This document shows, piece after piece, positions 1 through 64,000 of a stretch of DNA of 64,000 bases. A program made the translations under genes and the position numbers. The stretch is taken from NCBI GenBank assembly GCA_963693285.1, contig OY848918.1, positions 8,249,156 to 8,313,155 on the forward strand. Direction: 5' to 3'. How positions within the stretch are numbered: position 1 is the first letter of the stretch; every line of letters starts with the position of its first letter. The notes below the pieces were generated by a model that was not told where the DNA came from, ran no database searches, and saw only the letters and a program-made list of their open reading frames with translations. Origin of the DNA: Xestospongia muta. Lineage: Eukaryota; Porifera; Demospongiae; Haplosclerida; Petrosiidae.

Positions 1-1623
1 ACTACTGTTACTAACATTACATTGACTGGAGTACTAGCTGGATATACCTACATTATAACAGTGGTACCAGTTAATATACTAGGAGATGGATACCTTAATA
101 AGACTATAGGTTATTTAAATATTATTATAAAGTGTGTTATATTTACTTCCCATACAGTTATCATTCCTAATGAGGAACCAATAATTACTAGTACTAGTAT
201 TGTAACAATATCATCTGAACATTGTAAGAGTGTTCAATATAACATACAAAATTAATTACATATTATATGTATTAGTAACACCAGTAAATGTATCTAGTCT
301 CTTTTCTACAACTGTAAGTGATACATCAATTATTAGTAAGTGTAAAACATTTATTATCATTTTTACTTAATGATGAATATAGAAACTTTGGTCCCTTTGA
401 TGTCTTTATTACAAAGTGCAACTAAAACAAGTACAATATCTTTAAACTCAACAGGTATGTCATTAAAAATTATTATAATTTAAGTATTACAATATAATGA
501 AATGTCTATATGTATACTCTATTTTTGTATAGCAGTTTCTATCTATAGCCTGTCAGGTTCATCTCCTACAAGTAATTTAATCAATCTAATATAACATTGC
601 TATTTCTATTTGACAATAGCAGTAATCACTACCACAACATCATCAACATCTGCTGGAATATATTATGTTATTGGGACTGTTGGAGGTATTATTGTTTTCA
701 TACTAATTGCTGTAGTACTATTTCTAGCTGGTTGTATAATAATTAGAAGACAAAATAAAAGTCAGGTGTTCCTATAATTACTTAATCCTTTAATACTCTC
801 AATATAGACAACAAAGCAAGTGGTAGTCCAGTAACTGTTTCTCTGAGGTCAGTTCAAATATACAAATATTCATTTTAATGATTATACTTTAGAAAAATTA
901 AAGACAATAACAGAGAAGAGGTAAGGTATTGTTACTTATATGTAGATAGTTAATACCTGCATGAGTAAATGAACATTTATTGATACAAAAATGTGATTGA
1001 TCATCATGACTCATTATTAGTTTATGTTAATCTAATTTGGAGTTACTCATCATTTCTTAAAATAATTTGGTCATTACTATAGTTATCTTCAGACCCCACC
1101 TATGATGAAGTAAACAATAAACCACAGCCTCTATCTCTACAATATGATGAGGTCCCTCCTCCAGTGCCTCCTTATTTAGCTGATAATGACCAGCCACCTC
1201 CTGAAACACTGTTACATTCTGAGGATAATCCTTCTGTACCCTTTTATAATGATGAACCTGTGATATCTCAGTATTCTGAAGTCAAGAGAGAGCATATAGC
1301 ACTTCATACAGCTGAAGGAAATTATTCTGTTTTGAAGAGAGAAGAGAGAGAAGTCAGTTAAATGTAGGTACACAATCACATGACCATATTATAATTACAG
1401 AGCAGAGAGAATAATTCTCAGTTACAACAGACTGGTCTGTATTCAACTCTAAATAATGAAGTAAGAGATAATACAGTCAACTATATCATAACAACTTATA
1501 TCATATTAGATAATCAAACCAATTGGAGCCAGAGCTGAGCCAAGAGGAGTTAGAAATATAATATATGCTGAACTAGGCAATGTCTCTAAGAATGTTGCCA
1601 TAATCTTCTTTAATTGTCACTAA
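1..1623 (+). CDS. Receptor A1, 3' part (second FN3, stalk, TM, shortened tail A)
   Basis: The window opens inside the second FN3 domain (exon 5, to 109). Exons follow at 158-223, 276-335, 383-454, 533-571, 620-760, 808-847, 893-920, 1083-1352, 1401-1460 and 1510-1623, all with matching phases by comparison with gene A2. Exon 10 (620-760) holds the transmembrane helix (YYVIGTVGGIIVFILIAVV) followed by basic residues. The tail has YDEV twice, then YSEV, YSVL, YSTL and YAEL. Odd: in exon 15 a deletion removes the segment that in sister copies carries the last motif (VIYSDI) together with its splice donor, so the frame runs into TAA at 1621. The protein therefore loses one YxxI motif and the proline-rich C terminus. 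Likely a functional type I receptor with a shortened tail; the 5' half lies outside the window. Confidence 0.75.
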
Positions 1624-1626
1624 CAG

Positions 1627-1776
1627 AGGCTCTCTACAAAAGGTATTATGATACAGGCTCAGTTAGGAGAACTGGATTTACCTCCACCACGTCCTCCTAA
1701 GCCTGGTCCCAAACCTATTTGCCATGGCAGTGGAGGCCAGTCAACAACAGTAATTCCCTCTATACATCACCTGTAA
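1627..1776 (+). pseudogene. Stranded last exon (16) of receptor A1
   Basis: The last coding exon of the tail A module is still open here: 49 codons plus TAA, preceded by CACTAACAG, with the PPPRPPKP SH3-ligand core. The donor that should join it to exon 15 was deleted in this copy, so it is probably untranslated and now lies in the 3' UTR of A1. Confidence 0.6.
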
Positions 1777-2020
1777 AATGATCATAACTCACTGCTGACT
1801 TATACAATGTTAAATATGCCACATTTTAGTTCATTTTTTAATTTTGTCATGTTTTATATATTAATAGTTTTTAGCTTTTGTCAAACTAGTATCATTTATT
1901 TATTAACTATAATATGTTAACTAGTATTTGTTTACATATGAACTTCATATGATCACTTTGTATCATTATAGCAGCTGTCAATATTAATTATTAATCGCTA
2001 GTATTCTCAATATTTGTTGT

Positions 2021-2068
<48 letters not shown>

Positions 2069-3550: not shown

Positions 3551-3551
3551 A

Positions 3552-4075
3552 ATATGTTATAATAAAACAAGTCAGGTGTGTTGGTGTAATAGATACAAAC
3601 TCAATGACTTGTACTATTATGATATCAGGTATGTCACTAACAGTATCATATATATCTAACAATGTACTATCATTATAAGGTCCTCCAAGTGATGCTCCCA
3701 CAGGACTGGGTTTTACAGCTCTCACAAACACTTTAGTCACTTTCTATTGATCAACTCCTACTCTTCATTTTAACTGTATTGTCAATATACTGCCTTCACC
3801 CTCTCCTTTCATCCTCCTCTCTTGTACTTAAAGTCTATTATAACATATCAAGTTCACTAACTGTTAATATAACTTCTGTTACTAACATTACATTGACTGG
3901 AGTACTAGCTGGATATACCTACATTATAACAGTGGTACCAGTTAATATACTAGGAGATGGATACCCTAATAAGACTATAGGTTATTTAAATATTATTATA
4001 AAGTGTGTTATGTTTACTTCTCATACAGTTATCATTAATGATGAACCAATGATAATTAGTGTCAACATATTATAG
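3552..4075 (+). pseudogene. Receptor relic R1 (exon 2 end, exon 3 start, exon 5, short end exon)
   Basis: Fragments occur in gene order: the end of the Ig exon (about 3571-3630), the start of the first FN3 exon (about 3681-3770, with an in-frame TGA after TTCTAT), then directly the second FN3 exon (about 3801-3980), and a short terminal exon at 4029-4075 ending HDEP-like residues, MIISVNIL and TAG (here NDEPMIISVNIL). There is no signal peptide, transmembrane exon or tail. The FN3 exon 5 is nearly identical to that of the working genes. The same composite recurs upstream of other units, so it was duplicated as part of the unit. Confidence 0.75.
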
Positions 4076-4805: not shown

Positions 4806-7685
4806 ATGAAAGAGTATGGTACAATATTGATTTGTCTTCTATTACCAGTCATAAGTGAGTTAATATATAATATTTGTTAGTATGTCCTTATAGTGAACAT
4901 AGAAGCTTCAGTTACAAGTCTAGACTGTAATCATGGAGTATGTCCACAGACACAAGGAGTACTCACTTGTACAATAACAGGAAGTGTAGCAACATGGTAT
5001 TCTCCTTCATCAGATGATAGTGCCATTGCTACAGTAACTTCTGGATTAGTGAGTAATGTTGATAATATTGGGTTTACAGCTGCTCTTGTAAGCAATACTT
5101 CTGAACTAACAACTAATTTAAGTTTTACTGCCACTACTGATAAGAATGGAACACAAGTCAGGTGTGGTGATTTAATAGATACAAATTCAATGACTTGTAC
5201 TATTATGATATCAGGTATATCACTAACAGTATCATAATATATAACTAACATGCACTATCATTATAAGGTCCTCCAAGTGATACTCCTACAACACTGGGTT
5301 TTACAGCTCTCACAAACACTTCAGTCACTCTCTACTGGTCACCTCCTATTCTTAATCCTAACTGTGTAGTTAACTACACTGTTGAGATCAGGACAACCAG
5401 TGATAATATATTGATCAGTAGTCTTAATACTGGTAGTAATATCACCAGTATTAATGTATCTACTGGTCTCAATCAGTCAGTAGAGTATCAGTACAGAGTA
5501 GTAGGGTCTGATGCTGTTAATAGATTAGGACCCTATAGTCAATATACTATGTTCACTTTAGATAGTAAGAGTTAGATTATTCTAGTTCCCTTGAGGAGTG
5601 CTAGTTTTTAGTTCTGCAGGCTGTACCACTAATCACTTATAATATCACAAAGAATACAGACAACTACAAAATTATTGTAATTTGGGAGGTATGTATTTCT
5701 GTTTATAATAACTGAGTCTAGTTTTTTATTTAGTCACCTCCTCTCTCCTCTCATCCACCTCTTTTGTACTATAAAGTCTATCGCAACATATCAGGTTTAC
5801 TAACTGTCAATATAACTACTGTTACTAACATTACATTGACTGGAGTACTAGCTGGATATATCTACATTATAACAGTGGTACCAGTTAATATACTAGGAGA
5901 TGGATACTCTAATAAGACTATAGGTTATTTAAATATTATTATAAAGTATGTTATGTTTACTTCTCATACAGTTATCATTCCTGATGAGGAACCAATAATT
6001 ACTAGTACTAGTAATGTAACAAAATCATCTGAACATTGTAAGAGTGTAACATACAAAATTAATTACATATCATTTGTATTAGCAACACCAGTAAATGTAA
6101 CTAGTCTCTTTTCTACAACTTTAATTGATACATCAATTATTAGTAAGTGAAAAACATTTATTATCACTCTTACTTAATGATGAATATAGAAACTTTGGTC
6201 CCTTTGATGTCTTTATTACAAAGTGCAACTAAAACAAGTACAATATCTTTAAACTCAACAGGTATGTCCTTAGAAATTATTATAATTTAAGTATTACAAT
6301 ATAATGAAATGTTATATATATATACTCTATTTTTTGTATAGCAGTTTCTATCTATAGCCTGTCAGGTTCATCTCCTACAAGTAATTTAATGAATCTAATA
6401 TAACATTGTTATTTCTATTTGACAATAGCAGTAATCACTACCACAACATCATCAACATCTGCTGGAATATATTATGTTATTGGGACTGTTGGAGGTATTA
6501 TTGTTTTCATACTAATTGCTGTAGTACTATTTCTAGCTGGTTGTATAATGATTAGAAGACAGAATAAAAGTCAGGTGTTCCTATAATTACTTAATCCTTT
6601 AATACTCTCAATATAGGCAACAAAGCAAGTGGTAGTCCAGTAAATATTTCTCTGAGGTCAGTTCAAATATACTAATATTCATTTTAATGATTATACTTTA
6701 GCAGTATTAATGACAATAACAGAGAAGAGGTAAGGTATTGTTACTTATATGTAGATAGTTAATACCTGCATGAGTAAATGAACATTTATTGATACAAAAA
6801 TGTGATTGATCATCATGACTCATTATTAGTTTATGTCAATCTAATTTGGAGTTACTCATCATTTCTTAAAATAAATTGGTCCTTACTATAGTTATCTTCA
6901 GACCCCACTTATGCTGAAGTAAACAAGAAACCACAACCTCTATCTCTACAATATGATGAGGTCCCACCTCCAGTGCCTCCTTATTTAGCTGATAATGACC
7001 AGCCACCTCCTGAACCACTGTTCCATTCTGAGGATAATCTTTCTGTACCCTATTATAATAAGGAACTTGTGATAGCGCAGTATTTTGAAGTCAAGAATAT
7101 AGCACTTCATACAGCTGAAGGAAATTATTCTGTTTTGAAGAGAGAAGAGAGAGAAGTCAGTTAAATGTAGGTACACAATCATATGAACATATTATTATTA
7201 TTATAGAGCAGAGTGAATAACTCTCAGTTACAACAGACTGGTTTCTATTCAACTCTAAATCATGAAGTATGAAATAATACAGTCAATAATATCATAATAA
7301 CTTATATCATATTAGACAATCAAACCAATTGGAGGCAGAGCTGAGCCAAGAGGAGTTAGAAATATAATATATGCTGAACTAGGCAATGTCCCTAAGAACA
7401 GATCAATGATATCTCCTACATCTAATTTAGAGCAGTCTGTTATCTACTCTGATATCAAAACACCAACTGACCCTAATAAGGTATCTTGTGTAATACAACA
7501 ATGTTGCCATAATTTTCTTTAATTGTCACTAACAGAGGCTCTCTACAAAAGGTATTATGATACAGGCTCAGTTAGGAGAAATGGAGTTACCTCCATCACG
7601 TCCTTCTAAACCTGGTCCCAAACCTAGTTCCCATGGCAGTGGAGGCCAGTCAACAACAGTAATTCCCTCTATACATCACCTGTAA
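4806..7685 (+). CDS. Receptor A2: Ig + 2 FN3 + TM + long multi-tyrosine tail (intact)
   Basis: Sixteen exons with fully compatible phases, about 672 residues: 4806-4854, 4894-5214, 5268-5564, 5612-5688, 5734-5923, 5972-6037, 6083-6142, 6190-6261, 6342-6380, 6429-6569, 6617-6656, 6702-6729, 6892-7155, 7207-7266, 7316-7480, 7536-7685. Exon 1 is a signal peptide (MKEYGTILICLLLPVI). Exon 2 is Ig-like: five cysteines, TCTITG...WYSP and NGTQVRC as the C-W-C core. Exon 3 is FN3-1 and exons 4-5 are FN3-2, rich in N-glycosylation sites. Exons 6-9 form a Ser/Thr-rich stalk and exon 10 the membrane helix. The tail carries YAEV, YDEV, YFEV, YSVL, YSTL, YAEL and YSDI, ITIM-like where V, I or L stands at -2, and ends in a proline-rich SH3-ligand-like stretch (here PPSRPSKP). 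Inferred role: cell-surface recognition receptor signalling through SH2 and SH3 proteins. Exon boundaries are predicted, not confirmed by transcripts. Confidence 0.85.
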
Positions 7686-9750: not shown

Positions 9751-11891
9751 ATGAAAAAGTATGGTACAATGTTGATTTGTCTTTTATTACCAGTCATAAG
9801 TGAGTTAATATATAATATTTGTTAGATAGCCTTACAGTGAACATAGAAGCTACAGTTACAAGTCTAGACTGTAATCATGGAGTATGTCCACAGACACAAG
9901 GAGCACTCACTTGTACAATAACAGGAGGTCAAGCAGCTTGGTATTCTCCTCCATCAGATAGTACTCTCATTGCTACAGTAAGTTCTGGAGAAGTTGTTAG
10001 TAGTAACACTGAGTTAATTGCTGCTCTTGTGAGTGTTAACAATTCTGGACTAACAACTAATTTAAGTTTTATTGCCACTACTGATAAGAATGGAACACAA
10101 GTCAGGTGTAGTGATGTAATAGATACAAACTCAATGACTTGTATTATTATGATATCAGGTATGTCACTAACAGTATCATATATAACTAACATGTACTATC
10201 ATTGTAAGGTCCTCCAAGTGATCCTCCTACAGGACTGGATTTTACAGCTCTTACAAACACATCAGTCACTCTTTACTGGTCACCTCCTACTCTTCATCCT
10301 AACTGTATAGTTAACTACACTGTTGAGATCAGGACAACTAGTGATAATATATTGATCAGTAATCTAAGTACTGGTAGTAATATCACCAGTATTAATGTAT
10401 CTACTGGTCTCTCTCAGTCAGTAGACTATCAATACAGAGTAGTAGGGTCTGATGCTGTTAATAGATTAGGACCCTATAGTCAATATACTATGTTCACTTT
10501 AGATGGTAAGAGTTAGATTATTCTAGTTCCCTTGAGGAGTACTAATTTTAAGTTCTACAGGCTGTACCACTAATTACTTATAACATCACAAAGAATACAG
10601 ACAACTACTTTATTGTTGTAATTTGGGAGGTATGTATTTCTGTATAATATAACTGAGTTTAGTATATTTATTTAGTCACCTCCTCTTTTCTCTCGTCCTC
10701 CTCTCTTGTACTACAAAGTCTATCACAACATATCAGGTTCACTAACTGTTAATATAACTACTTTTACTAACATTACATTGACTGGAGTACTAGCTGGATA
10801 TACCTACATTATAACAGTGGTACCAGTTAATATACTAGGAGATGGATACCCTAATAAGACTATAGGTTATTTAAATATTATTATAAAGTGTGTTATGCTT
10901 ACTTTTCATACAGTTATCATTTCTAAACAACCAATAATCACTAGTGTTGTAATAACATCATTTAACAAAAGTAATCAATTATTTATCTTTAAGGCTAATA
11001 ATATTATTAATACTGAACATGTAGATTGTCATTATTCTCATAATGTGCTGTCCAAACTAAGATAATTATTAATTATATTTGGTGATAGTGTGTACACACA
11101 CACACATTGGGTATTTGCTTGGGTCTGAGACAAGCATTCTACAAACACTCTTCACCAATGAAAAATTACATAAGCATAATTAGACCATTCAACAAATTTT
11201 ATTAATCAACAAATCTGTATGGTTTCTGGTTCAGGCAACTTTTTATTCTACACAATGATCTGACACTTACTACTTACTTTTCCCTATTATTGTAGTCATC
11301 ATAACAAGTGCTTCATTAAATATTAGTAAGTGCATAAATATTTGTGATATTTATAGAAACTACAAGTTCATTGATGTTATTGTCAATTCCAACAACTATT
11401 ACATCTTTTTACTTAACTGGTAGGACCTTAAAACCCATTTGAATACATAATTACTTATCTATTTCACAGACACTTACTTTAGTTCTTCAGTCATTCAAAT
11501 TCCTACAGTCACTATAACTTCCACTGTTTGTACATGTCCAAGTAATTTATAGTCAAAAGTGTAAGTGTACAATTATATTTCCATTGTAGCTAATGAAAAA
11601 CAACAAACCTCATGTTTAGCAGGTAATTAAACAAATGCATTATATTACTGAATTGTTTACTTAACAGTGAGTATACCAGTTAGTATGTTCCTCTCTTCTC
11701 TATTAACTGCTGTTATTACTACACTTATTGTCTATCTCATTATGAGGAAGAGGAGCTACAATAAAGATACTCCACCCACTACTACTACCCAATTAGGTCC
11801 AATATATGATGATGTTAAGTTACCAGAGACCTCAGAACATAAAGAGATCATTGAATTACAAGGAAATACTGCTTATGGATATATTAATTAA
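9751..11891 (+). CDS. Receptor B1: Ig + 2 FN3 + TM + short tail (intact)
   Basis: Eleven exons, all phases compatible, about 470 residues: 9751-9799, 9838-10158, 10209-10505, 10553-10629, 10676-10865, 10914-10970, 11296-11325, 11357-11419, 11470-11541, 11590-11622, 11668-11891. Exons 1-5 are homologous to A2 (signal peptide MKKYGTMLICLLLPVI, Ig-like domain, FN3-1, FN3-2). The stalk differs: it has a CTCP-like cysteine pair (VCTCP) in exon 9. The last exon encodes the helix (MFLSSLLTAVITTLIVYLIM), basic KRRS-like residues and a short tail with IYDDVKLP and C-terminal AYGYIN. The second motif has Asn at +2 of the last Tyr, as Grb2-type SH2 ligands do. Tail B lacks both the ITIM series and the proline-rich end. 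Inferred: a paired receptor with the same kind of ectodomain but different signalling. Confidence 0.85.
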
Positions 11892-15299: not shown

Positions 15300-17339
15300 A
15301 TGAAAAAGTGTATTGCAACATTGATTTGTCTTCTATTACCAGTAATAAGTGAGTTAAATATAATATTTGTTAGTATGACCTTATAGCAAATATAGAAGAA
15401 ATAAATATAGAATATTTATTTCTTATAGTGAACATAGAAGCTTCAGTTACAAGTCTAGACTGTAATCATGGAGTGTGTCCACAGACACAAGGAGCACTCA
15501 CTTGTACAATAACAGGAAGTGTAGCAGCTTGGTATTCTCTTCGATCAGATAGTACATTGCTACAGTAAGTTCTGGACAAGTTAATAATGTTGATAATACT
15601 GGGTTTACTGCTGCTTTTGTGAGCAATACGTCTAGACTAACAACTACTTTAAGTTTTACTGTCACTACTGATAAGTATGGAACACAAGTCAGGTATAGTA
15701 ATGTAATAGATACAAACTCAATGACTTGTACTATTATGATATCAGGTATGTCACTAACAGTATCATAATATATAACTAACATGTACTATCATTATAAGAA
15801 CCTCCAAGTGATGTTCCTACAGGACTGGGTTTTACAGCTCTCACTAACACTTCAGTCACTCTCTACTGGTCACCTCCTACTCTTCATCCTAACTGTATAG
15901 TTAACTACACTGTTGAGATCATGACAACCAGTGATAATATATTGATCAGTAGTCTTAGTACTGGTAGTAATATCACCAGTATTAATGTATCTACTGTTCT
16001 CTCTCAGTCAGTAGAGTATCGGTACAGAGTAGTAGGGTCTGATATTATCAATAGATTATGACCCTATAGTCAATATACTATGTTCTCTCTGGATGGTAAG
16101 AATGAAATAGTTTTAATACCTTATCTAATATTTCATTAGTTCTACAGGCTGTACCACTAATCACTTATAATATCACAAAGAATACAGAAAACTACACTAT
16201 TATTGTGATTTGAGAGATGTGTATTTCTGTTTATAATAACTGTGTCTAGTATTTTCATTTAGTCACCTTCTCTCTCCTTTCATCCTCCTCTCTTGAACTA
16301 CACTATTATTGTCATTTGGAAGGTATATATATATTGTTGTTCATAATATTGTTACTTTAGTTTCATTTAGTCTCCTTCTCTCTCCTCTCATCCTCCTCTC
16401 TTGTACTATAAAGTCTATCACAACAAATCAGGCTCACTAACTGTTAATGTAACTACTGTTACTAACATTACATTGACTGGAGTACTAGCTGGATATACCT
16501 ACATTATAACAGTGGTACCAGTTAATATACTAGGAGATGGATACCCTAATAAGACTATAGGTTATTTAAATATTATTATAAAGTGTGTTATGTTTATTTC
16601 TCATACAGTTTACATTCCTGAAGAACCAACAATTACTAGTGTTGTAATAATGTCATTTAATGAAAGTAATCAATGTATTATTTATTAGTAAATGTACTTA
16701 CTACTTTTCCTTATTATTGTAGTCATCAAAACAAATGTTCTATTAAATTGTAGTAAGTACAAATATATAATATATGTACATAGTTTATGATATTTATAGA
16801 AACTGTAAGTTTATTGATGTCATTGTCAATTCCAGCAAGTATTACATTTTTTTACTTAACTGGAAAGTGCTATATTATAGTCAATTTTACTAAATGATTA
16901 CTTATCTGTTTCATAGACATTTACTTGAGTTCTTCACACATTCAAATTAATACAGTCATTTTAACTTCAACTGCTTGTACATGTCCAAGTAATTACTAGG
17001 CAAAAGTGTAAGTGTACAATTTTATTTTCATTATAGCTAATGAAAGACAACAAACATGTTCATCAGGTAATTTATAAAACAAACATGTTACATTAATGAA
17101 TTGTTTATTTAACAGTGAGTATACCAGTCAGTATGTTCCTCTCTTCTCTATTAACTGCTGTTATTACTACATTTATTGTATATCTCATTGTCAGGAGGAG
17201 GAGCTACAATAAAGACACTCCACCCACTACTACTACCCAATTAGGTCCAATATATGATGATGTTAAGTTACCAGAGACCTCAGAACATAAAGAGATCATT
17301 GAAATACAAGGAAATACTGCTTATGGATATATTAATTAA
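15300..17339 (+). pseudogene. Receptor B2, type B, disrupted
   Basis: Layout as in B1. The signal peptide exon (15300-15348, MKCIATL-like start with Cys-Ile-Ala-Thr) and FN3-2 exon 5 (16371-16560) are open, as is the last exon (17116-17339, helix plus IYDDV and AYGYIN). Disabling changes: a 4-bp deletion in the Ig exon after AGT (about 15554) leading to TAA at 15566; TGA replacing GGA in FN3-1 at 16059; TGA at 16211 in exon 4 with loss of its donor, followed by a partial exon 4/5 duplication; and the donor of stalk exon 8 changed from GT to GA near 16862. Intron 1 carries an insertion of about 50 bp that duplicates the acceptor region. Probably not a functional receptor, but its tail exon has been kept open. 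Confidence 0.8.
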
Positions 17340-18815: not shown

Positions 18816-20745
18816 CTAAGTAATATATCCATAAGCAGTATTTCCTTGTAATTCAATGATCTCTTTTTGTTCTGAGGTTTCTGGTAACTTAACATCATCA
18901 TATATTGGACCTAATTGGGTAGTAGTAGTGGGTGGAGTGTCTTTATTGTAGCTCCTCCTCCTCATAATGAGATAAACAATAAGTGTAGTAATAACAGCAG
19001 TTAATAGAGAAGAGAGGAACATACTGACTGGTATACTCACTGTTAAGTAAATAATTTATTAATGTAACATGTTTGTTTTATTACCTGCTAAACATGATGT
19101 TTGTTGGTTTACAATAGCTGTAATGGGCAACAGAATTATATAAACTTCAACTATTATTATAATGTACCTGGACAAGTTGAAGTAGTTACAGTTGAAGATA
19201 CAGTCACTTTCAAAGTAGAAATCATTAAAGAACTTAAATAAATTGTATCTACAATGTAAAGAAATAGATAACTGTTCAATGAGATTATATATGACATACT
19301 GCTAGTGTGAAGACATAGTAAAATAAAAAAATATAAAATATATATATATCATCGAACCTACACTTACATATTCTGGATGAATCACTTGTGATCATTACCT
19401 TTGTAGAATATGAACTATGTTCATTTATCAATGACTTTGATACTATTATAGTTTATATAAGTAATATTATTTATTTATAAATAGTCTTACCATGATATTT
19501 AGATGACGATATGACAACATTATTACTAGTAATTATTGATTCTTTAGGAATGATAACTGTATGAGAAGTAAACATAACACACTTTATAATAATATTTAAA
19601 TAACCTATAGTCTTATTAGGGTATCCATCTCCTAGTATATTAACTGGTACCACTGTTATAATGTAGATATATCCAGCTAGTACTCCACTCAATGTAATGT
19701 TAGTAACAGTAGTTATATTAGCAGTTAGTGAACCTGATATGTTGTGATAGACTTTGTAGTACAAGAGAGGAGGACGAGAAGAGAGAGGAGGAGACTAAAT
19801 GAAACTAGAGTAATATTTCAAGTAATTATGAATAATATACCTTCCAAAAAATAAAAATATTATAGCTGTCTATGTTGTTTGTAATTGCATAAGTGATTAG
19901 TGGTACAGCTTCTAGAACTAATAAAGCAGATCACTTAATATAATATTAAAACTAATTAATTCATACCATCCAAAGTGAACATAGTATATTGACTATAGGG
20001 TCCTAATCTATTGATAGTATCAGACCCTACTACTCTGTATTGATACTCTACTGACTGAAAGAGATTAGTAGATACATTAATACTGGTGATATTACTACCA
20101 GTACTAAAACTATTGATCAATATATTATCACTGGTTGTCCTGATCTCAACAGTGTAGTTAACTATACAGTTAGGATGAAGAGTAGGAGGTGACCAGTAAA
20201 GAGTGACTGAAGTGTTTGTGAGAGCTGTAAAACCCAGTCCTGTAGGAGCATCACTTGGAGAACCTTATAATGATAGTACATGCTAGTTATATATGATACT
20301 GTTAGTGACATACCTGATATCACAATAGTACAAGTCATTGAATTTGTATCTATTAAATCAGCACACCTGACTTGTGTTCCATTCTTATCAGTAGTGGCAG
20401 TAAAGCTTAAATTAGTTGTTAGTCCAGAAGTATTGCTCACAAGAGCAGCAGTAAACCCAGTATTATCAACATTACTAACTTGTCCAGAACTTACTGTAGC
20501 AATGGGATTACTATCTGATGGAGGAGAATACCAAGCTGCTACACTGCCTGTTATTGTACAAGTGAGTGCTCCTTGTGTCTGTGGACATACTCCATGATTA
20601 CATTCTAGACTTGTAACTGAAGCTTCTATATAAACTATATATAATGATATTTATAGCATTGTATACTTTGTTCATAACAGCATAAGATACACTTACCTCT
20701 GACAAGGAAGAGAAGATAAATAACTGTTGCATCATACCTCTCCAT
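18816..20745 (-). CDS. Receptor B3: Ig + 2 FN3 + TM + short tail (intact, inverted)
   Basis: Ten exons on the minus strand, phases compatible, about 470 residues: 20745-20697, 20634-20314, 20263-19967, 19917-19841, 19794-19605, 19556-19491, 19442-19368, 19248-19168, 19117-19085, 19039-18816. The signal peptide differs from the other copies (MERYDATVIYLLFLVR), as does the upstream region, which has only a short ACTCAACC match. Ig-like domain, FN3-1 and FN3-2 are as in B1, with exon 4 diverged (ITNNIDSYNIFIFW). One stalk exon is reduced to a remnant near 19295-19310; skipping it keeps the frame. The stalk has STCP. The last exon is the tail B module with IYDDVKLP and C-terminal AYGYIT, so Asn at the +2 site of the last Tyr is replaced by Thr. 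Confidence 0.8.
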
Positions 20746-26225: not shown

Positions 26226-26329
26226 CTAAATGAAACTAGAATATTATCAAGTGATTGCTAATAATATTATACCTAAATATATAATTTATAAAACAAACAT
26301 GTTACATTACTGAATTGTTTATTTGACAG

Positions 26330-30985: not shown

Positions 30986-30989
30986 ATTA

Positions 30990-31140: not shown

Positions 31141-31251
31141 TAAATATAATATGTCATCATAGTTAACCTAATGAAGCTCAATCAACAGGTCAATGTTTTT
31201 ACAATGACATATCTCTAATTGTATTATAATTGCTAATGAAACCCACACCAA

Positions 31252-31650: not shown

Positions 31651-31770
31651 AGATCAGAACAATCAGTGATAATATATACTACATCAGTTAATTAATCTTA
31701 CAATGAAAGTGCAACAAATTAAAAGTACTCATTAAAGACATATGATAAATCTTGTATGTTATAGATCACA

Positions 31771-45349: not shown

Positions 45350-48229
45350 ATGAAAAAGTATGGTACAATATTGATTTGTCTTCTATTACCAGTAATAAGT
45401 GAGTTAAAATATAATATTTGTTAGTATGGCTTTATAGTGAACATAGAAGCTTCAGTTACAAGTCTAGACTGTAATCATGGAGTATGTCCACAGACACAAG
45501 GAGCAGTCAATTGTACAATAACAGGCAGTGTAGCAACTTGGTACTCTCCTTCATCAGATGATCCTCCCATTGCTATAGTAAGTTCTGGAAAAGTTACTAA
45601 TGTTGCTAATATTGGATTTACTGCTGCTCTTGTGAGCAATAATTCTGGACTAACAACTGATTTAAGTTTTACTGCCACTACTGATAAGAATGGAACACAA
45701 GTCAAGTGTGTTGATGTAATAGATACAAACTCAATGACTTGTACTATTATGATATCAGGTATGTCATTAACAGTATCATATATAACTAACATGTACTATC
45801 ATTATAAGGTCCTCCAAATGATGTTCCTACAGGTCTGGGTTTTACAGCTCTCACAAACACTTCAGTCACTCTCTACTGGTCACCTCCTACTCTTCATCCT
45901 AACTGTATAGTTAACTACACTGTTGAGATCATGACAACCAGTGATAATCTATTAATCAGTAGTCTTAGTACTGGTAGTAATATCACCAGTATTAATGTAT
46001 CTACTGGTCTCTCTCAGACAGTAGAGTATCAATACAGAGTAGTAGGGTCTGATGTTGTTAAAAGACTAGGACCCTATAGTCAATATATTATGTTCGCTTT
46101 GGATGGTAAGAGTTAGATTATTATAGTTCTCATAAGGAGTGCTAATTTTAAGTTTTACAGGCTGTACCACTAATTACTTATAATATCACAAAGAATACAG
46201 ACAACTACACAATTGTTGTAATTTGGGAGGTAGGTGTTTCGGTTTACAATAACTGAGTTTAGTATTTTCATTTAGTCACCTCCTCTCTCCTCTCGTCCTC
46301 CTCTCTTGTACTATAAAGTCTATCACAACATATCAGGTTTACTAACTGTTAATATAACTACTGTTACTAACATTACATTGACTGGAGTACTAGTTGGATA
46401 TACCTACATTATAACAGTGGTACCAGTTAATATATTAGGAGATGGATACTCTAACAAGACTATAGGTTATTTAAATATTAATATAAAGTGTGTTATATTT
46501 ATTTCTCATACAGTTGTCATTCCTGATAAAGAACCAATTATTACTAGTATTAGTATTGTAACATTATCATCTGAACATTGTAAGAGTGTAACATACAAAA
46601 TTAATTACATATTATTTGTATTAGTAACACCAGTAAATGTAACTAGTCTCTTTTCTACAACTGTAATTGATACATCAATTATTAGTAAGTGAAAAACATT
46701 TATTATCACTTTTACTTAATGATGAATATAGAAACTTCGGTCCCTTTGATGTCTTTATTACAAAGTGCAACTAAAACAAGTACAATATCTTTAAACTCAA
46801 CAGGTATGTCCTTAGAAATTATTATAATTTAAGTATTACAATATAATGAAATGTCTATATATATACTCTATTTTTTGTATAGCAGTTTCTATCTATAGCC
46901 TGTCAAGTTCATCTCCTACAAGTAATTTAATTAATCTAATATAACATTGCTATTTCTATTTGACAATAGCAGTAATCACTACAACAATGTCATCATCATT
47001 ATATGCTGGAATATATTCTACTATTGGAACTGTTGGAGGTATTATTGTTTTTATACTAATTGCTGTAGGACTAGTTCTAACTGGTTGTATAATGATTAGA
47101 AGACTAAATAAAAGTCAGATGGTTCTGTAATTACTTAGTCCATTAATACTCTCAATATAGGTAACAAAGCAAGTGGTACTCCAGTAACTGTTTCTCTGAG
47201 GTCAGTTCAAATATACTAACATTCATTTTAATGATTATACTTTAGAAACATTAAAGACAATAACAGAGAAGAGGTATGATGTTATTACTTATATGTACAT
47301 AGTTAATACCTGCATAAGTAAATAAATATTTATTGATACAAAAATATGATTGATCATCATGACTCATTATTAGTTTATATCAATCTAATTTGGAATTACT
47401 CATCATTTCTTAAAATAATTTGGTCATTACTATAGTTATCTTCAGACCCCACCTATGATGAAGTAAACAAGAAACCACAACTTTTATCTCTACAATATGA
47501 TGAAGTCCCTCCTCCAGTGCCTCCTTATTTAGCTGATAATGACCAGCCACCTCCTGAACCACTGTTCCATTGTGAGGATAATCCTTCTGTACCCCATTAT
47601 AATGAGGAACCTGCAATAGCTCAGTATTCTGAAGTCAAGAGAGAGCATATAGCACTTCATACAGCTGAAGGAAATTATTCTGTTTTGAAGAGAGAAGAGA
47701 GAGAAGTCAGTTAAATGTAGGTACACAATCACATGACCATATTATTATAGAGCAGAGAGAATAACTCTCAGTTACAACAGACTGGTTTGTATTCAACTCT
47801 AAATAATGAAGTAAGAGATAATACAGTCAACTATATCATAATAACTTGCATCATATTAGATAAACAAACCAATTGGAGCTAGAGCTGAGCCTAAAGGAGT
47901 TAGAAATATAATATATGCTGAACTAGGCAATGTTCCTAAGAACAGACCATTGGCACCTCTTCCATCAAATTTAGAGCAGTCTGTTATCTACTCTGATATC
48001 AAAGCACCAACTGACCCTAATAAGGTATCTTGTGTGATATAACAATGTTCCCATAATCTTCTTTAATTGTCACTAACAGAGGCTCTCTACAAAAGGTATT
48101 ATGATACTGGCTCAGTTAGGAGAAATGGAGTTACCTCCACCACGTCCTCCTAAACCTGGTCCCAAACCTGGTTTCCATGGCTGTGGAGGTCAGTCAACAA
48201 CAGTAATTCCCTCTATACATCACCTGTAA
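45350..48229 (+). CDS. Receptor A5: Ig + 2 FN3 + TM + long multi-tyrosine tail (intact)
   Basis: Sixteen exons, phases compatible, about 675 residues: 45350-45398, 45438-45758, 45809-46105, 46153-46229, 46276-46465, 46514-46579, 46625-46684, 46732-46803, 46883-46921, 46970-47113, 47161-47200, 47246-47273, 47436-47705, 47751-47810, 47860-48024, 48080-48229. Architecture as A2. Ig exon variants cluster in one stretch (SPSSDDPPIAIVSSGKVTN). Exon 10 has one extra codon and a changed lead into the helix (SSSLYAGIYSTIG). The tail has YDEV, YDEV, YSEV, YSVL, YSTL, YAEL and YSDI, then PPPRPPKP. Context and inferred role as for A4, from which it is one unit (about 5.56 kb) away. Confidence 0.85.
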
Positions 48230-51193: not shown

Positions 51194-53413
51194 ATGAAAA
51201 AGTATGGTACAATGTTGATTTGTCTTCTATTACCAGTCATAGGTGAGTTAATATATAATATTTGTCCGTATGACTTTATAGTGAACATAGAAGCTACAGT
51301 TACAAGACTAGACTGTAATCATGGAGTATGTCCACAGACACAAGGAGCACTCACTTGTACAATAACAGGAAGTCTAGCAACTTGGTATTCTCCTCCATCA
51401 GATAGTACTCTCGTTGCTACAGTAAGTTCTGGACTAGTTAGTAATGTTGATAATACTGGGTTTACTGCTGCTCTTGTGAGCAATATTTCTGGACTAACAA
51501 CTAATTTAAGTTTTACTGCTACTACTGATAAGAATGGAACACAAGTCAGGTGTAGTGATGTAATAGATCAAAGTTCAATGACTTGTACTATTATGATATC
51601 AGGTATGTCACTAACAGTATCATATATAACTAATTATATAACATGTACTACATTATAAGGTCCTCCAAGTGATGCTCCTACAACACTGGGTTTTACAGCT
51701 CTCACAAACACTTCAGTCATTCTCTACTGGTCACCTCCTACTCTTCATCCTAACTGTATAGTTAACTACACTGTTGAGATCACAACAACCAGTGATAATA
51801 TATTGATCTATAGTCTTAGTACTGGTAGTAATATCACCAGTATTAATGTATCTACTGGTCTCAATCAGTCAGTACAGTATCAATACAGAGTAGTAGGGTC
51901 TGATGGTATTAATAGATTAGGACCCTATAGTCAATATACTATGTTCACTTTAGATGGTAAGAGTTGGATTATTCTAGTTTCCTTGAGGAGTGCTAATTTT
52001 TAGTTCTACAGGCTGTACCACTAATTACTTATAATATCACAAAGAATACAGAGAACTACACTATTGTTATAATTTGGGAGGTATGTATTTCTGTTTATAA
52101 TAACTGAGTCTAGTTTTTTATTTAGTCTCCTCCACTCTCCACCCATCCTCCTCTCTTGTACTATAAAGTCTATCATAACATATCAGGTTCACTACCTGTT
52201 AATATAACTACTGTTACTAACATTACACTGACTGAAGTATTAGCTGGATATACCTACATTATAACTGTGGTACCAGTTAATATACTAGGAGATGGATACC
52301 CTAATAAGACTATAGGTTATTTAAATAATATTATAAAGTATGTTATATTTACTTCTCATTCAGTTATCATTCATTCATAATGAACCAATGATAATTAGTG
52401 TCAACATATTATAGAATATCATAGAAAGACTATTTCAAGTAATTTATCTAGAATAAGTAAGTACAGATTTAGTTAAGATATATTTTTAAATGAATATAGT
52501 AATTGTGTGTCCTTTCATGTTCTCATCAACTCCAACTTTACTCTCATTTCAGTCAGTAATATTAATATATAAATGTACCTAGCTCTTTCAAAAACTGTAG
52601 CAAATATTTAATACTTTTTTCAATATATAATGTTGAATATGTTAAGAATCCATCAGTCCTTTGATGTTTATGACTAGACTCCACTAATTCAAAATATTCA
52701 CTGTTCACTCTATATATGTAATTTGTTTTAAGCAATCATTACATTTATGACTCCATACATGCAATTATTAATTTGATTATTTCCACTTTAGTCAGTAAAG
52801 TAAAAATACAATACAGTTCTGAAGGAAATTATTCTGTTTTGAAGAGAGAAGAGAGAGAAGTCAGTTAAATGTAGGTACATAATCATATGAACATATTATT
52901 ATAGAGCAGAGAGAATAATTCTCAGTTACAACAGACTGGTTTGTATTCAACTCTTAATAATGAAGTAAGATATAATACAGTCAATTATATTATAACAACT
53001 TATATCATATTAGACAATCAAACCAATTGGAGGCAGAGCTGAGCCAAGAGGAGTTAGAAATATAATATATGCTGAACTAGGCAATGTCCCTAAGAACAGA
53101 CCAATGGTACCTCAACAAAAGACAACAAACCTCATGTTTATCAGGTAATTAAACATATGCGTTATATTACTGAATTGTTTACTTAACAGTGAGTATACCA
53201 GTCAGTATGTTCTTTTCTTCTCTATTAACTGCTGTTATCACTACACTTATTGTCTATCTCATTATGAGAAGGAGGAGCTACAATAAAGACACTCCACCCA
53301 CTACTACTACCCAATTAGGTCCAATATATGATGATGTTAAGTTACCTGAGACCTCAGAACATAAAGAGATCATTGAATTACAAGGAAATACTGCTGATGG
53401 ATATATTAATTAA
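51194..53413 (+). CDS. Chimeric receptor: intact ectodomain, A-tail remnants, type B TM exon
   Basis: The signal peptide (51194-51242), Ig (51282-51602), FN3-1 (51660-51956) and FN3-2 (52004-52080, 52126-52315) exons are intact. Spliced onward in the usual way, the next exon reads HS and stops at 52378, which would give a protein with no helix. Further down lie the end of tail A exon 13 (52816-52859), exon 14 (about 52905-52964) and part of exon 15 (about 53018-53108), joined within a few bases to the end of type B stalk exon 10 and then a complete tail B exon (53190-53413; AYGYIN-like end with ADGYIN, so one tyrosine is lost). Skipping from exon 5 (phase 1) to 53190 (phase 1) would restore Ig-FN3-FN3-TM-tail B in frame. 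Either a chimera able to make secreted and membrane forms or a recombinant pseudogene. Confidence 0.6.
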
Positions 53414-56107: not shown

Positions 56108-58386
56108 ATGGTTATGAATTTCAGGTCAGTAATATTAGCAATACTAATACTAGCAGATGGTAAGAAATTACTAAGAATCAAATAGTTTTAATATCTTAAG
56201 TAATATGTTTTACTAGTTCTACAAGCGGTACCACTACTGACTTATACAATTACTAACAACACAGAGGACTATACTATTTTTATTGTTTGGGAGGTATAAT
56301 ATTATTAAAAATCACTTGATATTATTCTAATTTCATTTAGTCACCTCCTCTCTCCTTTTGTCCTCCTCTCTTGTACTACAAAGTCTATCACAACATATCA
56401 GGTTCACTAACTGTTAATATAACTACTGTTACTAACATTACATTGACTGGAGTACTAGCTGGATATACCTACATTATAACAGTGGTACCAGTTAATATAC
56501 TAGGAGATAAATACCCTAATAAAAAAGACTATAAGTTATTTAAATATTATTATAAAGTATAGTTAACTACACTGTTGAGATCAGGACAACCAGTGATAAC
56601 ATATTGATCAGTAGTCTTAGTACTGGTAGTAATATCACCAGTATTAATGTATCTACTGGTCTCAATCAGTCAGTAGAGTATCAGTACAGAGTAGTAGGGT
56701 CTGATACTGTTAATAGATTAGGATCCTATAGTCAATATACTATATTCACTTTAGATGGTAAGAGTTAGATTATTCTAGTTGCCTTGAGGAGTACTAATTT
56801 TTAGTTCTACAGTCTGTACCACTAATCACTTATAATATCACAAAGAATACAGACAACTACACAATTGTTGTATTTGGGAGGTATTCGTTTCAGTTTATAA
56901 TAACTGAGTCTAGTATATTCATTTAGTCACCTCCTCTCTCCTCTCGTCCTCCTCTCTCGTACTATAAAGTCTATCACAACGTATCAGGTTCACTAACTGT
57001 TAATATAACTACTGTTACTAACATTACATTGACTGGAGTACTAGATGGATATATCTACATTATAACAGTGGTACCAGTTAATATACTAGGAGATGGATAC
57101 CTTAATAAGACTATAGGTTATTTAATTGTTATTACAAAGTGTGTTATATTTACTTCTCATACAGTTATCATTCATGATGAGGAACCAATAATTACTAGTA
57201 CTAGTATTGTAACAACATCATCTGAACATTGTAAGAGTGTAACATACAAAATTAATTACATATCATTTGTATTAGTAACACCAGTAAATGTACCTAGTCT
57301 CTTTTCTACAACTGTAAATGATACATCAATTATTAGTAAGTGTAAAACCTTTATTATCACTTACTTAATGTTGAATATAGAAACTTTGGTCCCTTTGATG
57401 TCTTTATTACAAAGTGGAACTAAAACAAGTACAATAACTTTAAACTCAACAGGTATGTCCTTAGAAATTATTATAATTTAAGTATTACAATATAATGAAA
57501 TATCTATATATATATATACTCTATTTTTTGTATGTTATCTAATTTAGAGTTACTCATCATTTCTTAAAATAACTTGGTCTTTACTATAGTTATCTTCAGA
57601 TCCCACCTATGATGAAGTAAACAAGAAACCACAACCTCTATCTCTACAATATGATGAGGTCCCACCTCCAGTGCCTCCTTATTTAGCTGATAATGAGCAG
57701 TCACCTCCTGAACTACTGTTCCATTGTGAGGATAATCTTTCTGTACCCTCTTATAATGATGAACCTGTGATAGCTCAGTATTCTGAAGTCAAAAGAGAGC
57801 ATATAGCACTTCATACATCTGAAGGAAATTATTCTGTTTTAAAGAGAGAAGAGAGAGAAGTCAGTTAAATGTAGGTACACAATTACATGACCATATTATA
57901 ATTACAGAGCAGAGAGAATAATTCTCAGTTACAACAGACTGGTTTGTATTCAACTCTAAATAATGAAGTAAGACATAATACAGTCAACTATATCATAATA
58001 ACTTGCATCATATTAGATAAACAAACTAATTAGAGCCAATGCTGAGTCAAAAGGAGCTGGAGGTATAATATATGCTGAACTAGGCAATGTCCCTAAGAAC
58101 AGACCAATGGCACCTCCTCCATCAAATTTAGAGCGGTCTGTTATCTACTCTGATATCAAAGCACCAATTGACTCTAATAAGGTATCTTATATGATATAAC
58201 AATGTTGCCATAATCTTCTTTAATTGTCACTAACAGAGGCTCTCTACAAAAGGTATTATGATACAGGCTCAGTTAGGAGAAATGGAGTTACCTCCACCAC
58301 GTCCTCCTAAACCTGGTCCCAAACCTGGTTCCCGTGGCAGTGGAGGCCAATCAACAACAATAATCTCCTCTATACATCACCTGTAA
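56108..58386 (+). pseudogene. Mosaic receptor M2: new signal peptide + FN3-2 repeats + tail A, no TM
   Basis: A signal peptide unlike all others (56108-56159, MVMNFRSVILAILILAD, phase 1) is followed directly by a diverged exon 4 (56217-56293, LLTYTITNNTEDYTIFIVW) and exon 5 (56341 onward), giving a single FN3 domain without Ig. Exon 5 has a 4-bp insertion (AATAAAAAAGAC) that shifts the frame, and its sequence runs into half of an FN3-1 exon (56563-56757), exon 4 (56805 on, 1 bp lost), exon 5 (56927-57116) and stalk exons 6-8. Exons 9-12, including the transmembrane exon, are deleted at about 57530. Tail exons 57590-57859, 57908-57967, 58017-58181 and 58237-58386 are intact with YDEV, YDEV, YSEV, YSVL, YSTL, YAEL, YSDI and PPPRPPKP. 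As it stands it cannot give a normal receptor. Confidence 0.65.
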
Positions 58387-61177: not shown

Positions 61178-61299
61178 TGAGTTATAATGTAGACTCAACC
61201 CACAAAACACACCACCTATTTACATAAATAAGTCTAACAGGTATCATTGTCATTCATAAATCTATTGTATCATAACTATCATCTACTCATGCAGTCAAA
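61178..61299 (+). promoter_or_regulatory. Conserved upstream block of the 61300 copy
   Basis: AGACTCAACCCACAAAACAC and TTTACATAAATAAGTCTAAC, as before A2. Confidence 0.4.
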
Positions 61300-62386
61300 A
61301 TGAAAAGTATGGTACAATGTTGATTTGTCTTCTATTACCAGTCATAGGTGAGTTAATATATAATATTTGTCCGTATGACTTTATAGTGAACATAGAAGCT
61401 ACAGTTACAATTGCTACAGTGAGTTCTGGAGACATTGCTAATAGTAACACTGAGTTTACTGCTGCTCTTGTGAGTGTTAACAATCCTGGACTAACAACTA
61501 ATTTAAGTTTTATTGCCACTACTGATAAGAATGGAACACAAGTTAGGTGTGTTGATACAATAGATACAAACTCAATGACTTGTACTATTATGATATCAGG
61601 TATGTCACTAACAGTATCATATATAACTAACAATGTACTATCATTATAAGGTCCTCCAAGTGATGCTCCTACAGGACTGGGTTTTACAGCTCTCACAAAC
61701 ACTTCAGTCACTCTTTACTGGTCACCTCCTACTCTTAATCCTAACTGTATAGTTAACTACACTGTTGAGATCAGGACAACCAGTGTTAATATATTGATCC
61801 ATAGTCTTAGTACTGGTAATAATATCACCAGTATTAATGTATCTACTGGTCTCACTCAGTCAGTAGAGAGTATCAATACAGAGTAGTAGGGTCTGATACT
61901 GTTAATAGATTAGGACCCTATAGTCAATATACTATGTTCACTTTAGATGGTAAGAGTTAGATTATTCTAGTTCTCACGAGGAATACTAATTTTAACTACA
62001 CTTTAGTCACTTTCTACTGATCAACTACTACTCTTTATTTTAACTATAGTCAATATACTGTCTTCACCCTCTCCTCTTATCCTCCTCTCTTGTACTACAA
62101 AGTCTATCACAACATATCAAGTTCACTAACTGTTAATATAACTACTGTTACTAACATTACATTGACTGGAGTACTAGCTGGATATACCTACATTATAACA
62201 GTGGTACCAGTTAATATACTAGGAGATGGATACCCTAATAAGATTATAGGTTATTTAAATATTATTATAAAGTATGTCATGTTTACTTCTCATACAGTTA
62301 TCATTCATGATGAACCAATGATAATTCGTGTCAACATATTATATAATATCATAAAAAGACTATTTCAAGTGATTTATCTAGAATAG
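61300..62386 (+). pseudogene. Disrupted receptor with shortened Ig exon and secreted-type end
   Basis: The usual start codon at 61300 is followed by one A too few, which breaks the signal peptide; an in-frame ATG at 61317 would leave a short leader (MLICLLLPVI). The Ig exon (61387-61599) has lost 108 bp in frame, removing the segment with the first three cysteines and the core Trp. FN3-1 (from 61651) has a 2-bp insertion near 61868 (GTAGAGAGTATC), giving TAG TAG at once. Exon 4 is missing: the region switches to the FN3-1-end fusion typical of the relics, then FN3-2 exon 5 (to about 62246) and an end exon whose stop has mutated so that it runs on to TAG at 62384. A recombinant of a gene with a relic. 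Confidence 0.75.
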
Positions 62387-62941
62387 GTAAGTACAGATTT
62401 AGTTAATATATATTTTTAAATAAATATAGTAATTGCGTCTCCTTTCATGTTCTTGTCAACTCCAACCTTACTCTAATTTCAAGTCAGTAAAATTATTATA
62501 TAAATGTACCTAGCTCTTTCAACAACTGTAGCAATTTTTAATAATTTTTTCATCATATAATGTTGAATATGTTAAGAATCCATCAGTCCTTTGATGTTTA
62601 TTACTAGACTCAACTAATTCTACATATTCACTGTTCACTCTATATATGTAATTTGTTCAAGTAATCATTACATTTATGACTCCATACATGCAATTATTAA
62701 TTTGATTATTTCCACTTTCATAATGACAGTATTATTATTAATATTTTATTAGTAAAATTATAATACAATTTCATCTTCCTGTATATATCAGTAGAAGAGC
62801 TCTCATCAAATTCCAACAATTGATTATAAACACATTCAATACAGGTACATCAAAGTCAAACTTGTATGTTGACAACTATTGTAGTTAACATTGAAGTCAA
62901 TTTGAAGAACAGCATAAGTATTTACAATGAGTAACACAATA
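62387..62941 (+). pseudogene. Decayed stalk exons, unit copy 9
   Basis: Degenerate stalk exon sequence, no usable frames. Confidence 0.45.
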
Positions 62942-63063
62942 GTTGAGTTATAATGTAAACAAAACACAAAACAAACCACCTCTTTACATAAATTAGTCTA
63001 ACAGGTGTCATTGCCATTCATAAAACCATTGTATCATAACAATAATCTACCTATGCAGTCAAA
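62942..63063 (+). promoter_or_regulatory. Upstream block of the 63064 gene
   Basis: A shortened form: the ACTCAACCC element is lost (GTAAACAAAACACAAAACA) while CTTTACATAAATTAGTCTAA is kept. Confidence 0.35.
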
Positions 63064-64000
63064 ATGAAAAAGTATAGTACAATATTGATTTGTCTTCTAT
63101 TACCAGTCATAAGTGAGTTAATATATAATATTTGTTATATAGCCTTATAATGAACATAGAAGCTTCAGTTACAAGACTAGATTGTAATCATGGAGTATGT
63201 CCACAGACACAAAGAGCACTCACTTGTACAATAACAGGAAGTGCAGCAGCTTGGTATACTCCTCCATCAGATAGTAGTCCCATTGCTACAGTAAGTTCTG
63301 GACAAGTTAGTAATGTTGATAATACTGGGTTTACTGCTGCTTTTGTGAGCAATACTTCTGGACTAAAAACTAATTTAAGTTTTACTGCCACTACTGATAA
63401 GAATGGAACACAAGTCAGGTGTGCTGATTTAATAGATACAAACTCAATGACTTGTACTATTATGATATCAGGTATGTCACTAACAGTATCATATATAACT
63501 AACAATGTACTATCATTATAAGGTCCTCCAAGTGATGCTCCTACAGGACTGGGTTTTACAGCTCTCACAAACACTTCAGTCACTCTTTACTGGTCACCTC
63601 CTATTCTTAATCCTAACTGTATAGTTAACTACACTGTTGAGATTAGGACTACAAGTGATAATATATTGATCAGTAATCTTAGTACTGGTAATAATATCAC
63701 CAGTATTAATGTATCTACTGGTCTCAATCAGTCAGTAGAGTATCAATACAGAGTAGTAGGGTCTGATGCTGTTAATAGATTAGGATCCTATAGTCAATAT
63801 ACTATATTCATTTTAGATGGTAAGAGTTAGATATTCTAGTTCCCTTGAGGAGTGCTAATTTTTAGTTCTACAGGCTGTACCACTAATTACTTATAATATC
63901 ACAAAGAATACAGACAACTACACAATTGTTGTAATTTGGGAAGTATATATTTTTGTTTATAATAACTGAGTCTAGTATTTTCATTTAGTCACCTCCACTT
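63064..64000 (+). CDS. Receptor, 5' part (signal peptide, Ig, FN3-1, FN3-2 start)
   Basis: Exons 63064-63112, 63160-63471, 63523-63819, 63866-63942 and 63989 to the window edge, phases compatible. Signal peptide MKKYSTILICLLLPVI. The usual acceptor of exon 2 is mutated from AG to AA at 63149-63150, but the next AG, 9 bp in, keeps the frame and costs three residues; A3 uses the same later site. The Ig exon is otherwise complete (RLDC, VCPQTQ, TCTITG, WYTPPSD, NGTQVRCAD). FN3-1 carries NILISNLSTGNN. Whether this is a type A, type B or secreted-type gene cannot be told because the window ends in exon 5. Confidence 0.75.

What the first reader, a model, noticed from the sequence alone, without database searches (positions are those of the whole stretch)
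1..64000. Tandem cluster of Ig-FN3-FN3 receptors with ITIM-like tails, a candidate allorecognition or immune locus
Seen: at least five intact genes, two partial and about six broken ones, all with signal peptide, Ig-like exon, two FN3 domains, one helix and tyrosine tails, in one 64-kb stretch. Known: the Hydractinia Alr complex and vertebrate paired-receptor clusters combine clustered Ig-like membrane proteins with ITIM/ITAM tails. Inference: this is an analogous recognition system, probably in a sponge, possibly undescribed. The combination of variable Ig exons, near-identical FN3-2 and shared signalling tails fits a diversifying recognition locus.
Basis: partly seen in the sequence, partly recalled or inferred. 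Interest (0 to 1): 0.9.

Follow-up and report, generated by a model that had tools for sequence, protein, structure and literature searches.

The report
Giant sponge paired-receptor gene array
In what looks like the giant barrel sponge, a stretch of about 1.3 million bases on one chromosome carries over a hundred copies, many of them broken, of a cell-surface receptor gene with an antibody-like outer domain and one of two different signalling tails, a layout resembling the paired immune receptors of mammals and so a concrete candidate for how sponges tell self, neighbours or microbes apart.

Summary
The window is C2:8249156-8313155 of a 158-Mb genome whose chromosome 2, chromosome 3, total and mitochondrial lengths fit Xestospongia muta. 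Of 150 scored Ig-exon matches 148 lie on C2 7.37-8.71 Mb. In the window three 10-exon genes (519, 522, 522 aa) splice cleanly: leader, Ig, FN3, FN3, stalk, one helix, tail with six tyrosines. So there are two receptor types, A and B, with shared ectodomains; on the Ig tree the two ends are intermixed as in shuffled labels. The Ig exon is modelled as a V-type fold (moderate confidence), and its variability sits in predicted loops, though dN/dS does not differ between loops and strands. Five apparent SHP-like (SH2-SH2-phosphatase) genes are in the genome, three confirmed. Best reading: a paired-receptor-like recognition complex in a sponge. Allorecognition, the sign of each tail, expression and polymorphism are untested. 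It works like Hydractinia Alr, Botryllus FcoR and vertebrate paired receptors; membership in none is shown.

The parts
39791..42160 (+). Type-A receptor, intact, 522 aa. Exons: SP 39791-39839, Ig 39895-40209, FN3-1 40260-40556, FN3-2a 40604-40680, FN3-2b 40724-41027, stalk 41328-41366, TM 41415-41555, cyt1 41603-41642, cyt2 41688-41715, tail 41882-42160
   Evidence: All GT-AG, in frame, no stop
4806..7164 (+). Type-A receptor, intact, 519 aa
   Evidence: Exon model projected; all GT-AG, no stop
45350..47714 (+). Type-A receptor, intact, 522 aa
   Evidence: Exon model projected; all GT-AG, no stop
9751..11891 (+). Type-B receptor, intact, 483 aa: SP 9751-9799, Ig 9847-10158, FN3-1 10209-10505, FN3-2a 10553-10629, FN3-2b 10676-10970, stalk exons 11296-11325, 11357-11419, 11470-11541, 11590-11622, TM2 + short tail 11668-11891
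   Evidence: All GT-AG, in frame, no stop
18816..20745 (-). Type-B receptor on the minus strand, probably intact
   Evidence: Open through all placed exons; one donor and one acceptor not GT/AG in the projection, one stalk exon not placed
1..1361 (+). 3' part of a type-A gene (FN3-2b, TM, tail); to the left only part of FN3-1 and no Ig exon directly upstream
15300..17336 (+). Damaged type-B gene: frame break in the Ig exon, stops in FN3-1 and FN3-2a, TM2 17112-17336
34382..36413 (+). Damaged type-A gene: stop in the Ig exon, FN3-2b missing; inside a recent duplication
51194..53413 (+). Type-B-like gene: SP, Ig, FN3-1 and FN3-2a placed with GT-AG, FN3-2b end and stalk damaged, remnant of an A-type tail 52812-52865, TM2 53190-53413 with TAYGYI read as TADGYI
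56219..57868 (+). Partial type-A copy: FN3 exons and a full tail; no SP or Ig found
61302..62386 (+). Broken copy: first part of the Ig exon lost, frame break in FN3-1
63064..64000 (+). 5' part of a further copy (SP, Ig, FN3-1, FN3-2a) cut by the window end; end type unresolved
28199..28806 (+). Divergent Ig exon, a 17-aa FN3-1 stub, then a TM2 exon (28603-28806)
25210..26550 (.). Two TM2 exons with no FN3-2b within 2.5 kb upstream (25210-25434 minus, 26326-26550 plus)
29966..33057 (+). Tail copies of the longer type with stops (29966-30241 and beyond, 32866-33057)
3568..4003 (+). Relic: 3' end of Ig exon, piece of FN3-1, FN3-2b. Similar relics, not all with every piece, at 38490-39006, 44244-44557, 49829-50382, 55524-55718, 60354-60510
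21120..21747 (-). Two FN3 exons of a second, divergent Ig-FN3-FN3 subfamily (88-89% to L035:7327-7509)

Best explanation
A very large single-locus family of type I membrane receptors in a demosponge. Each has one V-type Ig domain on two FN3 domains. Closely similar ectodomains are joined to one of two ends: A, a tail of about 92-140 aa with several Y-x-x-V/L motifs and a PPPVPP stretch; or B, a short tail with YDDV and TAYGYI. Shown here: gene models, two ends, shared ectodomains, loop-centred variability, SHP-like phosphatase genes in the same genome. Inferred: the V domain binds a varied ligand on a neighbouring cell or microbe; the tyrosines become phosphorylated; A and B recruit different SH2 proteins (A most simply SHP-like phosphatases), so the cell integrates two readouts of one ligand class. 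Tandem duplication and exchange between copies renew the ligand-binding domain while most of the rest stays constrained. The most likely role is self/non-self discrimination in the wide sense (kin, other sponges, microbes).
Against: No expression, polymorphism, phosphorylation or binding data. dN/dS is the same in predicted loops (1.17) and strands (1.14), because dS too is higher in loops (0.200 against 0.091); the whole-Ig interval includes 1 (0.78-1.64), and with 20 copies of 8.23-8.43 Mb the 33-57 block is 1.57 (0.81-4.41): diversifying selection is suggestive only. Among nine intact genes Ig is 0.94 and cyt1 2.75 on 12 codons; TM1 is 1.00 (0.46-2.43), so not every part of the ends is shown to be constrained. 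Foldseek's best E is 3.4e-3, none at 1e-3; PDB is crowded with antibodies; Pfam does not call the Ig exon and the profile finds no Ig chain in PDB by sequence. B's helix has no charged residue, so it is not the usual adaptor-coupled partner. The LxYxxV motif is lost in five of six longer tails printed. Many copies are broken.
Confidence: 0.58

Rival explanations
1. A microbe-facing innate receptor family (symbiont and food-bacterium discrimination), not allorecognition: the varied loops bind microbial ligands. This is a narrower reading inside the same paired-receptor anatomy.
For: The X. muta genome paper recovers many symbiont genomes and stresses symbiosis (abstract and passages of PMC12398682). 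Nothing in the sequence separates this from allorecognition.
Against: No microbial ligand known; receptors with ITIM-type tails in other invertebrates are tied to allorecognition (PMC12065747 passages).
Confidence: 0.4
2. Ordinary adhesion molecules in a duplicating array with no variable recognition role; the variability is relaxed constraint and uneven gene conversion.
For: dN/dS equal in loops and strands, interval of the Ig exon includes 1; many broken copies; very recent duplications (12,380 bp at 99.28%).
Against: Variation concentrated in loops (0 of 88 shifts); tail tyrosines kept; two separate ends maintained over the array.
Confidence: 0.22
3. A mostly dead array with few functional genes.
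For: Relics and broken copies are frequent; eleven of 20 A-type projections failed.
Against: Nine open A models in 260 kb and five open B models; dN/dS below 1 in FN3-1, FN3-2b, tail and TM2, the last two with upper limits at about 1. At least four of the eleven failures (9751, 51194, 8244055, 8344377) are type-B genes, for which the A model was wrong, though only two of these four read open as B.
Confidence: 0.1
4. Assembly artefact: haplotypes or repeats misplaced in tandem.
For: A 12,380-bp block recurs 54,398 bp away at 99.28%.
Against: HiFi and Hi-C assembly with manual curation that removed haplotypic duplications; the stretch of uncertain contig order named for chromosome 2 is 16.1-18.9 Mb, not this one (PMC12398682 passages). 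In 260 kb only 12 or so long matches reach 97% (the 12 longest were listed).
Confidence: 0.04

Closest known systems
Hydractinia Alr family (allorecognition complex)
   Same: Clustered, duplicated IgSF membrane genes with some likely pseudogenes on one chromosome; V-set type domains; ITIM/ITAM motifs reported (passages of PMC11999971, PMC12065747, PMC11876637; the primary paper is not held)
   Different: About 40 genes there; here 150 scored Ig-exon matches, 105 of them near full length and open by hand count. Alr have V-set and I-set domains, here one V-type and two FN3. Two signalling ends here. Homophily and polymorphism unknown here; sequence relation not testable
Botryllus fester co-receptors (FcoR)
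   Same: Type I receptors of 520-610 aa with a variable-type Ig domain and tails with ITIM, hemITAM or core YxxI/L/V (passages of PMC12065747)
   Different: FcoR have sushi and C2 Ig domains; motif swapping there by alternative splicing or between alleles, here separate genes
Vertebrate paired receptors (KIR, LILR/PIR, SIRP; recalled)
   Same: Closely similar ectodomains joined to two kinds of signalling end in one cluster
   Different: No charged helix residue in either end; sign of each end unknown; FN3 instead of further Ig domains
Sponge aggregation factors
   Same: Published candidates for sponge allorecognition (cited in passages of PMC5450542 and PMC12065747; the former saw no enrichment of aggregation-factor-mediated adhesion genes after grafting)
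   Different: Extracellular proteoglycan components, not Ig-FN3 membrane receptors (recalled; passage calls the factor an extracellular proteoglycan complex)

Membership tests
Paired receptors (as a kind) | Closely similar ectodomains on two different TM/cytoplasmic ends in one cluster | tested here: met
Paired receptors (as a kind) | Activating member couples to an ITAM adaptor through a charged TM residue (recalled) | tested here: not met
   No D, E, K or R in the helix of nine A genes nor in the B helix SIPVSMFLSSLLTAVITTLIVYLIM
Paired receptors (as a kind) | One activating and one inhibitory member | not testable with these tools
   Needs biochemistry
ITIM-bearing receptors | (I/V/L/S)xYxx(I/V/L) in the cytoplasmic tail (consensus recalled) | tested here: met
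   LxYxxV in 15 of 15 aligned tails and nine of nine intact A genes; replaced in five of six longer tails
ITIM-bearing receptors | SHP-type phosphatase in the genome | tested here: met
   SH2-SH2-PTP: three ORFs confirmed by Pfam, two more by coordinates; binding not tested
ITAM-bearing receptors | YxxL/I-x6-12-YxxL/I (recalled) | tested here: not met
   Nearest is YDEV-x10-YDEV in type A, with V in place of L/I
V-type Ig domain | V-set fold with canonical cysteines and tryptophan | tested here: inconclusive
Hydractinia Alr family | Sequence homology to Alr1/Alr2 | not testable with these tools
   No Alr sequence at hand; primary paper not held
Hydractinia Alr family | Homophilic binding and polymorphism that decides fusion | not testable with these tools
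   Needs several individuals and binding assays
Hydractinia Alr family | V-set and I-set ectodomain | tested here: not met
   After the Ig exon come FN3 domains (Pfam fn3 E 1.3e-11 and 1.8e-13, two stretches each)
Demosponge origin, Xestospongia muta | mtDNA with atp9; assembly lengths of a named species | tested here: met
   atp9 by Pfam PF00137, cob and nad4 by eye, on an 18,990-bp contig; chr 2, chr 3, total and MT lengths fit. Not equal: 28 contigs here, 298 scaffolds in the paper; 158.03 against 158.52 Mb

The most novel reading that the evidence does not exclude
This is the germline-encoded self/non-self receptor locus of a sponge: a paired-receptor system built on single V-type domains whose varied loops are traded between two opposing signalling ends, so that variable-domain, dual-signal recognition through tyrosine motifs arose in Porifera too, either independently or before the split of animal phyla.
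Probability: 0.28. Interest if true: 0.95.

Novelty: new variant of a known kind. Interest (0 to 1): 0.8.

Why it matters
A 2025 review seen in passages (PMC12065747) says that there is no conservation among the candidate allorecognition proteins of sponges, cnidarians and ascidians, and that ITIM/ITAM-type motifs are found from cnidarians to mammals; sponge receptors with such tails are not mentioned in the passages seen (12 of 23 places). A named chromosomal interval in a sponge for which RNA-seq and an alternate haplotype are deposited makes the question of sponge recognition receptors directly testable.

Tried and rejected
Homologues: the 522-aa type-A protein against 5.8 billion proteins, 7996 candidates scored, none at E 1e-3; I take the collection to be mainly prokaryotic, so this says little about other sponges. 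Type B was not searched. PDB by sequence: six distinct sequences, all FN3-bearing molecules (titin, myomesin, neogenin, contactin); the Ig profile matched only short CD55 stretches at E 0.06-0.9, taken as chance. Pfam called no Ig domain in the exon. 'Tailless' copies as secreted decoys: considered, dropped when TM2 was found. Charged-helix adaptor coupling: looked for, absent. Literature: no paper describing this locus in the listings, nor in the passages of PMC5450542, PMC11999971, PMC12065747, PMC13119343, PMC11876637, PMC12909245; subscription papers and most preprints are not held. Rows dropped: the 11 of 42 genes with unresolved end and exons under the length cut were not used; two rows of the divergent subfamily stayed in the FN3-1 tree and add to its association. 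dN/dS figures are pairwise NG86 on paralogues that exchange sequence; intervals are codon bootstraps. One search prints '30' as a label, the count is 31.

Hand count of the table: 105 of 150 Ig matches run from residue 4 or earlier to 98 or later without a stop, 103 of them inside the array.

Full report
What is there. The window is G000:C2:8249156-8313155. Gene 39791-42160 has ten exons with GT-AG at every junction and reads as 522 aa: short hydrophobic leader (no signal-peptide program was run), Ig exon, FN3, FN3 split over two exons, Ser/Thr-rich stalk, one hydrophobic helix, two small cytoplasmic exons and a tail exon. Pfam gives two fn3 stretches (E 1.3e-11) and nothing for the Ig exon. 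The model projected on 20 SP-bearing places in 260 contiguous kb gave nine open genes, three in the window; eight have only GT-AG junctions, one outside the window has a TG acceptor.

A second receptor type. Genes that appeared to lack a tail carry, 528-848 bases after FN3-2b, a different exon: helix plus short tail with YDDV and TAYGYI. Seven such loci were aligned, and the gene at 9751-11891 splices into 483 aa with four Ser/Thr-rich stalk exons and GT-AG throughout. Of eight B candidates projected, five are open and three are not; of the five, only 9751 has all junctions GT-AG, one has a single GC donor, three have other mismatched or unplaced junctions. Among 42 FN3-1 exons of about 60 aa or more in 260 kb, 18 lead to the A end, 13 to B, 11 to neither within the limits set.

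Shared ectodomains. On the tree of 25 Ig exons (16 A, 9 B) the end type changes at least 8 times, against 7.5 for shuffled labels; A and B sequences are sisters on branches with support 96/95 and 90/96. FN3-1 (7 changes, 9.6 shuffled, 24-25 of 500 as low) and FN3-2b (6, 8.2, 34-44 of 500) are weakly associated with the end; most forks of those two trees are unresolved. I read this as exchange of ligand-binding exons between receptors with different ends; that step is inference.

Scale. Tail exon 98 matches of 119 candidates, Ig 150 scored of 271 candidates, FN3-1 150 of 540, TM2 150 of 224; one, two, three and two matches lie elsewhere, the rest on C2 about 7.28-8.75 Mb. By hand count 105 of the 150 Ig matches are near full length without a stop. 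I held DNA of 260 contiguous kb and of five 6-20-kb pieces, not of the whole array. A divergent Ig-FN3-FN3 gene with the TM2 exon and an A-like tail exon after it lies at 7.53 Mb (L035). Duplication is recent in places: 12,380 bp at 99.28%, 54,398 bp apart.

Tails. Six tyrosines are invariant in 15 of 15 tails, against 37 of 91 positions overall. Motifs: PTYDEV, LQYDEV (ITIM consensus), AQYSEV, GNYSVL, beside PPPVPP. Longer tails elsewhere in the array repeat GDYSVL/I and in five of six have lost the ITIM tyrosine; a third type has IIYEEL. dN/dS: tail 0.62, TM2 0.60, TM1 1.00. SH2-SH2-PTP proteins: three neighbouring ORFs on C3 of 571, 567 and 541 aa, the first with Q in place of H before the catalytic Cys; by coordinates two more on C5 and C8.

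Organism. PF00137 found atp9 on C28, an 18,990-bp contig, with a tRNA-Thr and, recognised by eye, cob before it and nad4 after it, an order I recall as demosponge-type. PMC12398682 (abstract and passages) gives Xestospongia muta 158.52 Mb, chromosome 2 22.15 Mb, chromosome 3 13.58 Mb, MT 18.99 kb; here 158.03 Mb, 22,145,118, 13,573,638 and 18,990 bp. The paper counts 298 scaffolds, the held genome 28 contigs.

How it likely works. Shown: two receptor types, a shared V-like ectodomain, kept tyrosines, SHP-like genes. Inferred: ligand binding by varied loops, phosphorylation, different SH2 partners for A and B, integration of two signals. Not known: ligand, sign of each end, cells, polymorphism.

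Compared with what is known. It works like clustered IgSF recognition systems (Hydractinia Alr, Botryllus FcoR, vertebrate paired receptors); no membership is claimed. It differs in phylum, domain order, size and the two separate ends. The library searches named under Tried and rejected gave no description of it.

Noticed in passing
C11 3.76-3.99, C12 0.97-1.34, C7 0.30-0.72, C2 9.41-9.70 Mb: Protein tyrosine phosphatase domains in large tandem clusters (199 matches, 150 of 521 candidates scored); two hits lie inside the receptor array (C2:7527362, 7620988).
   Followed up: partly
L036 (C3:11956001-11962000): Three adjacent SHP-like genes, each one open frame; one has an altered residue before the catalytic cysteine.
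   Followed up: partly
C8 6.53-6.58 Mb and C6 0.217-0.238 Mb: Clusters of SH2 domains; other domains not checked.
   Followed up: no
23681-24348: Tandem repeat of period 143, 4.7 copies.
   Followed up: no
22207-22479 (-): Strongly hydrophobic ORF near exons of the divergent FN3 subfamily; possibly another TM exon.
   Followed up: no
L035:340-993 and 1382-1648: ORFs that by eye resemble a DDE transposase and a PHD finger.
   Followed up: no
3568-4003, 38490-39006, 44244-44557, 49829-50382: A half-gene relic precedes several genes (4806, 39791, 45350, 51194) in a repeat unit of about 5.5 kb; could serve as a conversion donor, untested.
   Followed up: partly
C1:33166321-33166982, C2:14850361-14852524, C9:2997898-2998164: Few copies outside the array.
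   Followed up: no
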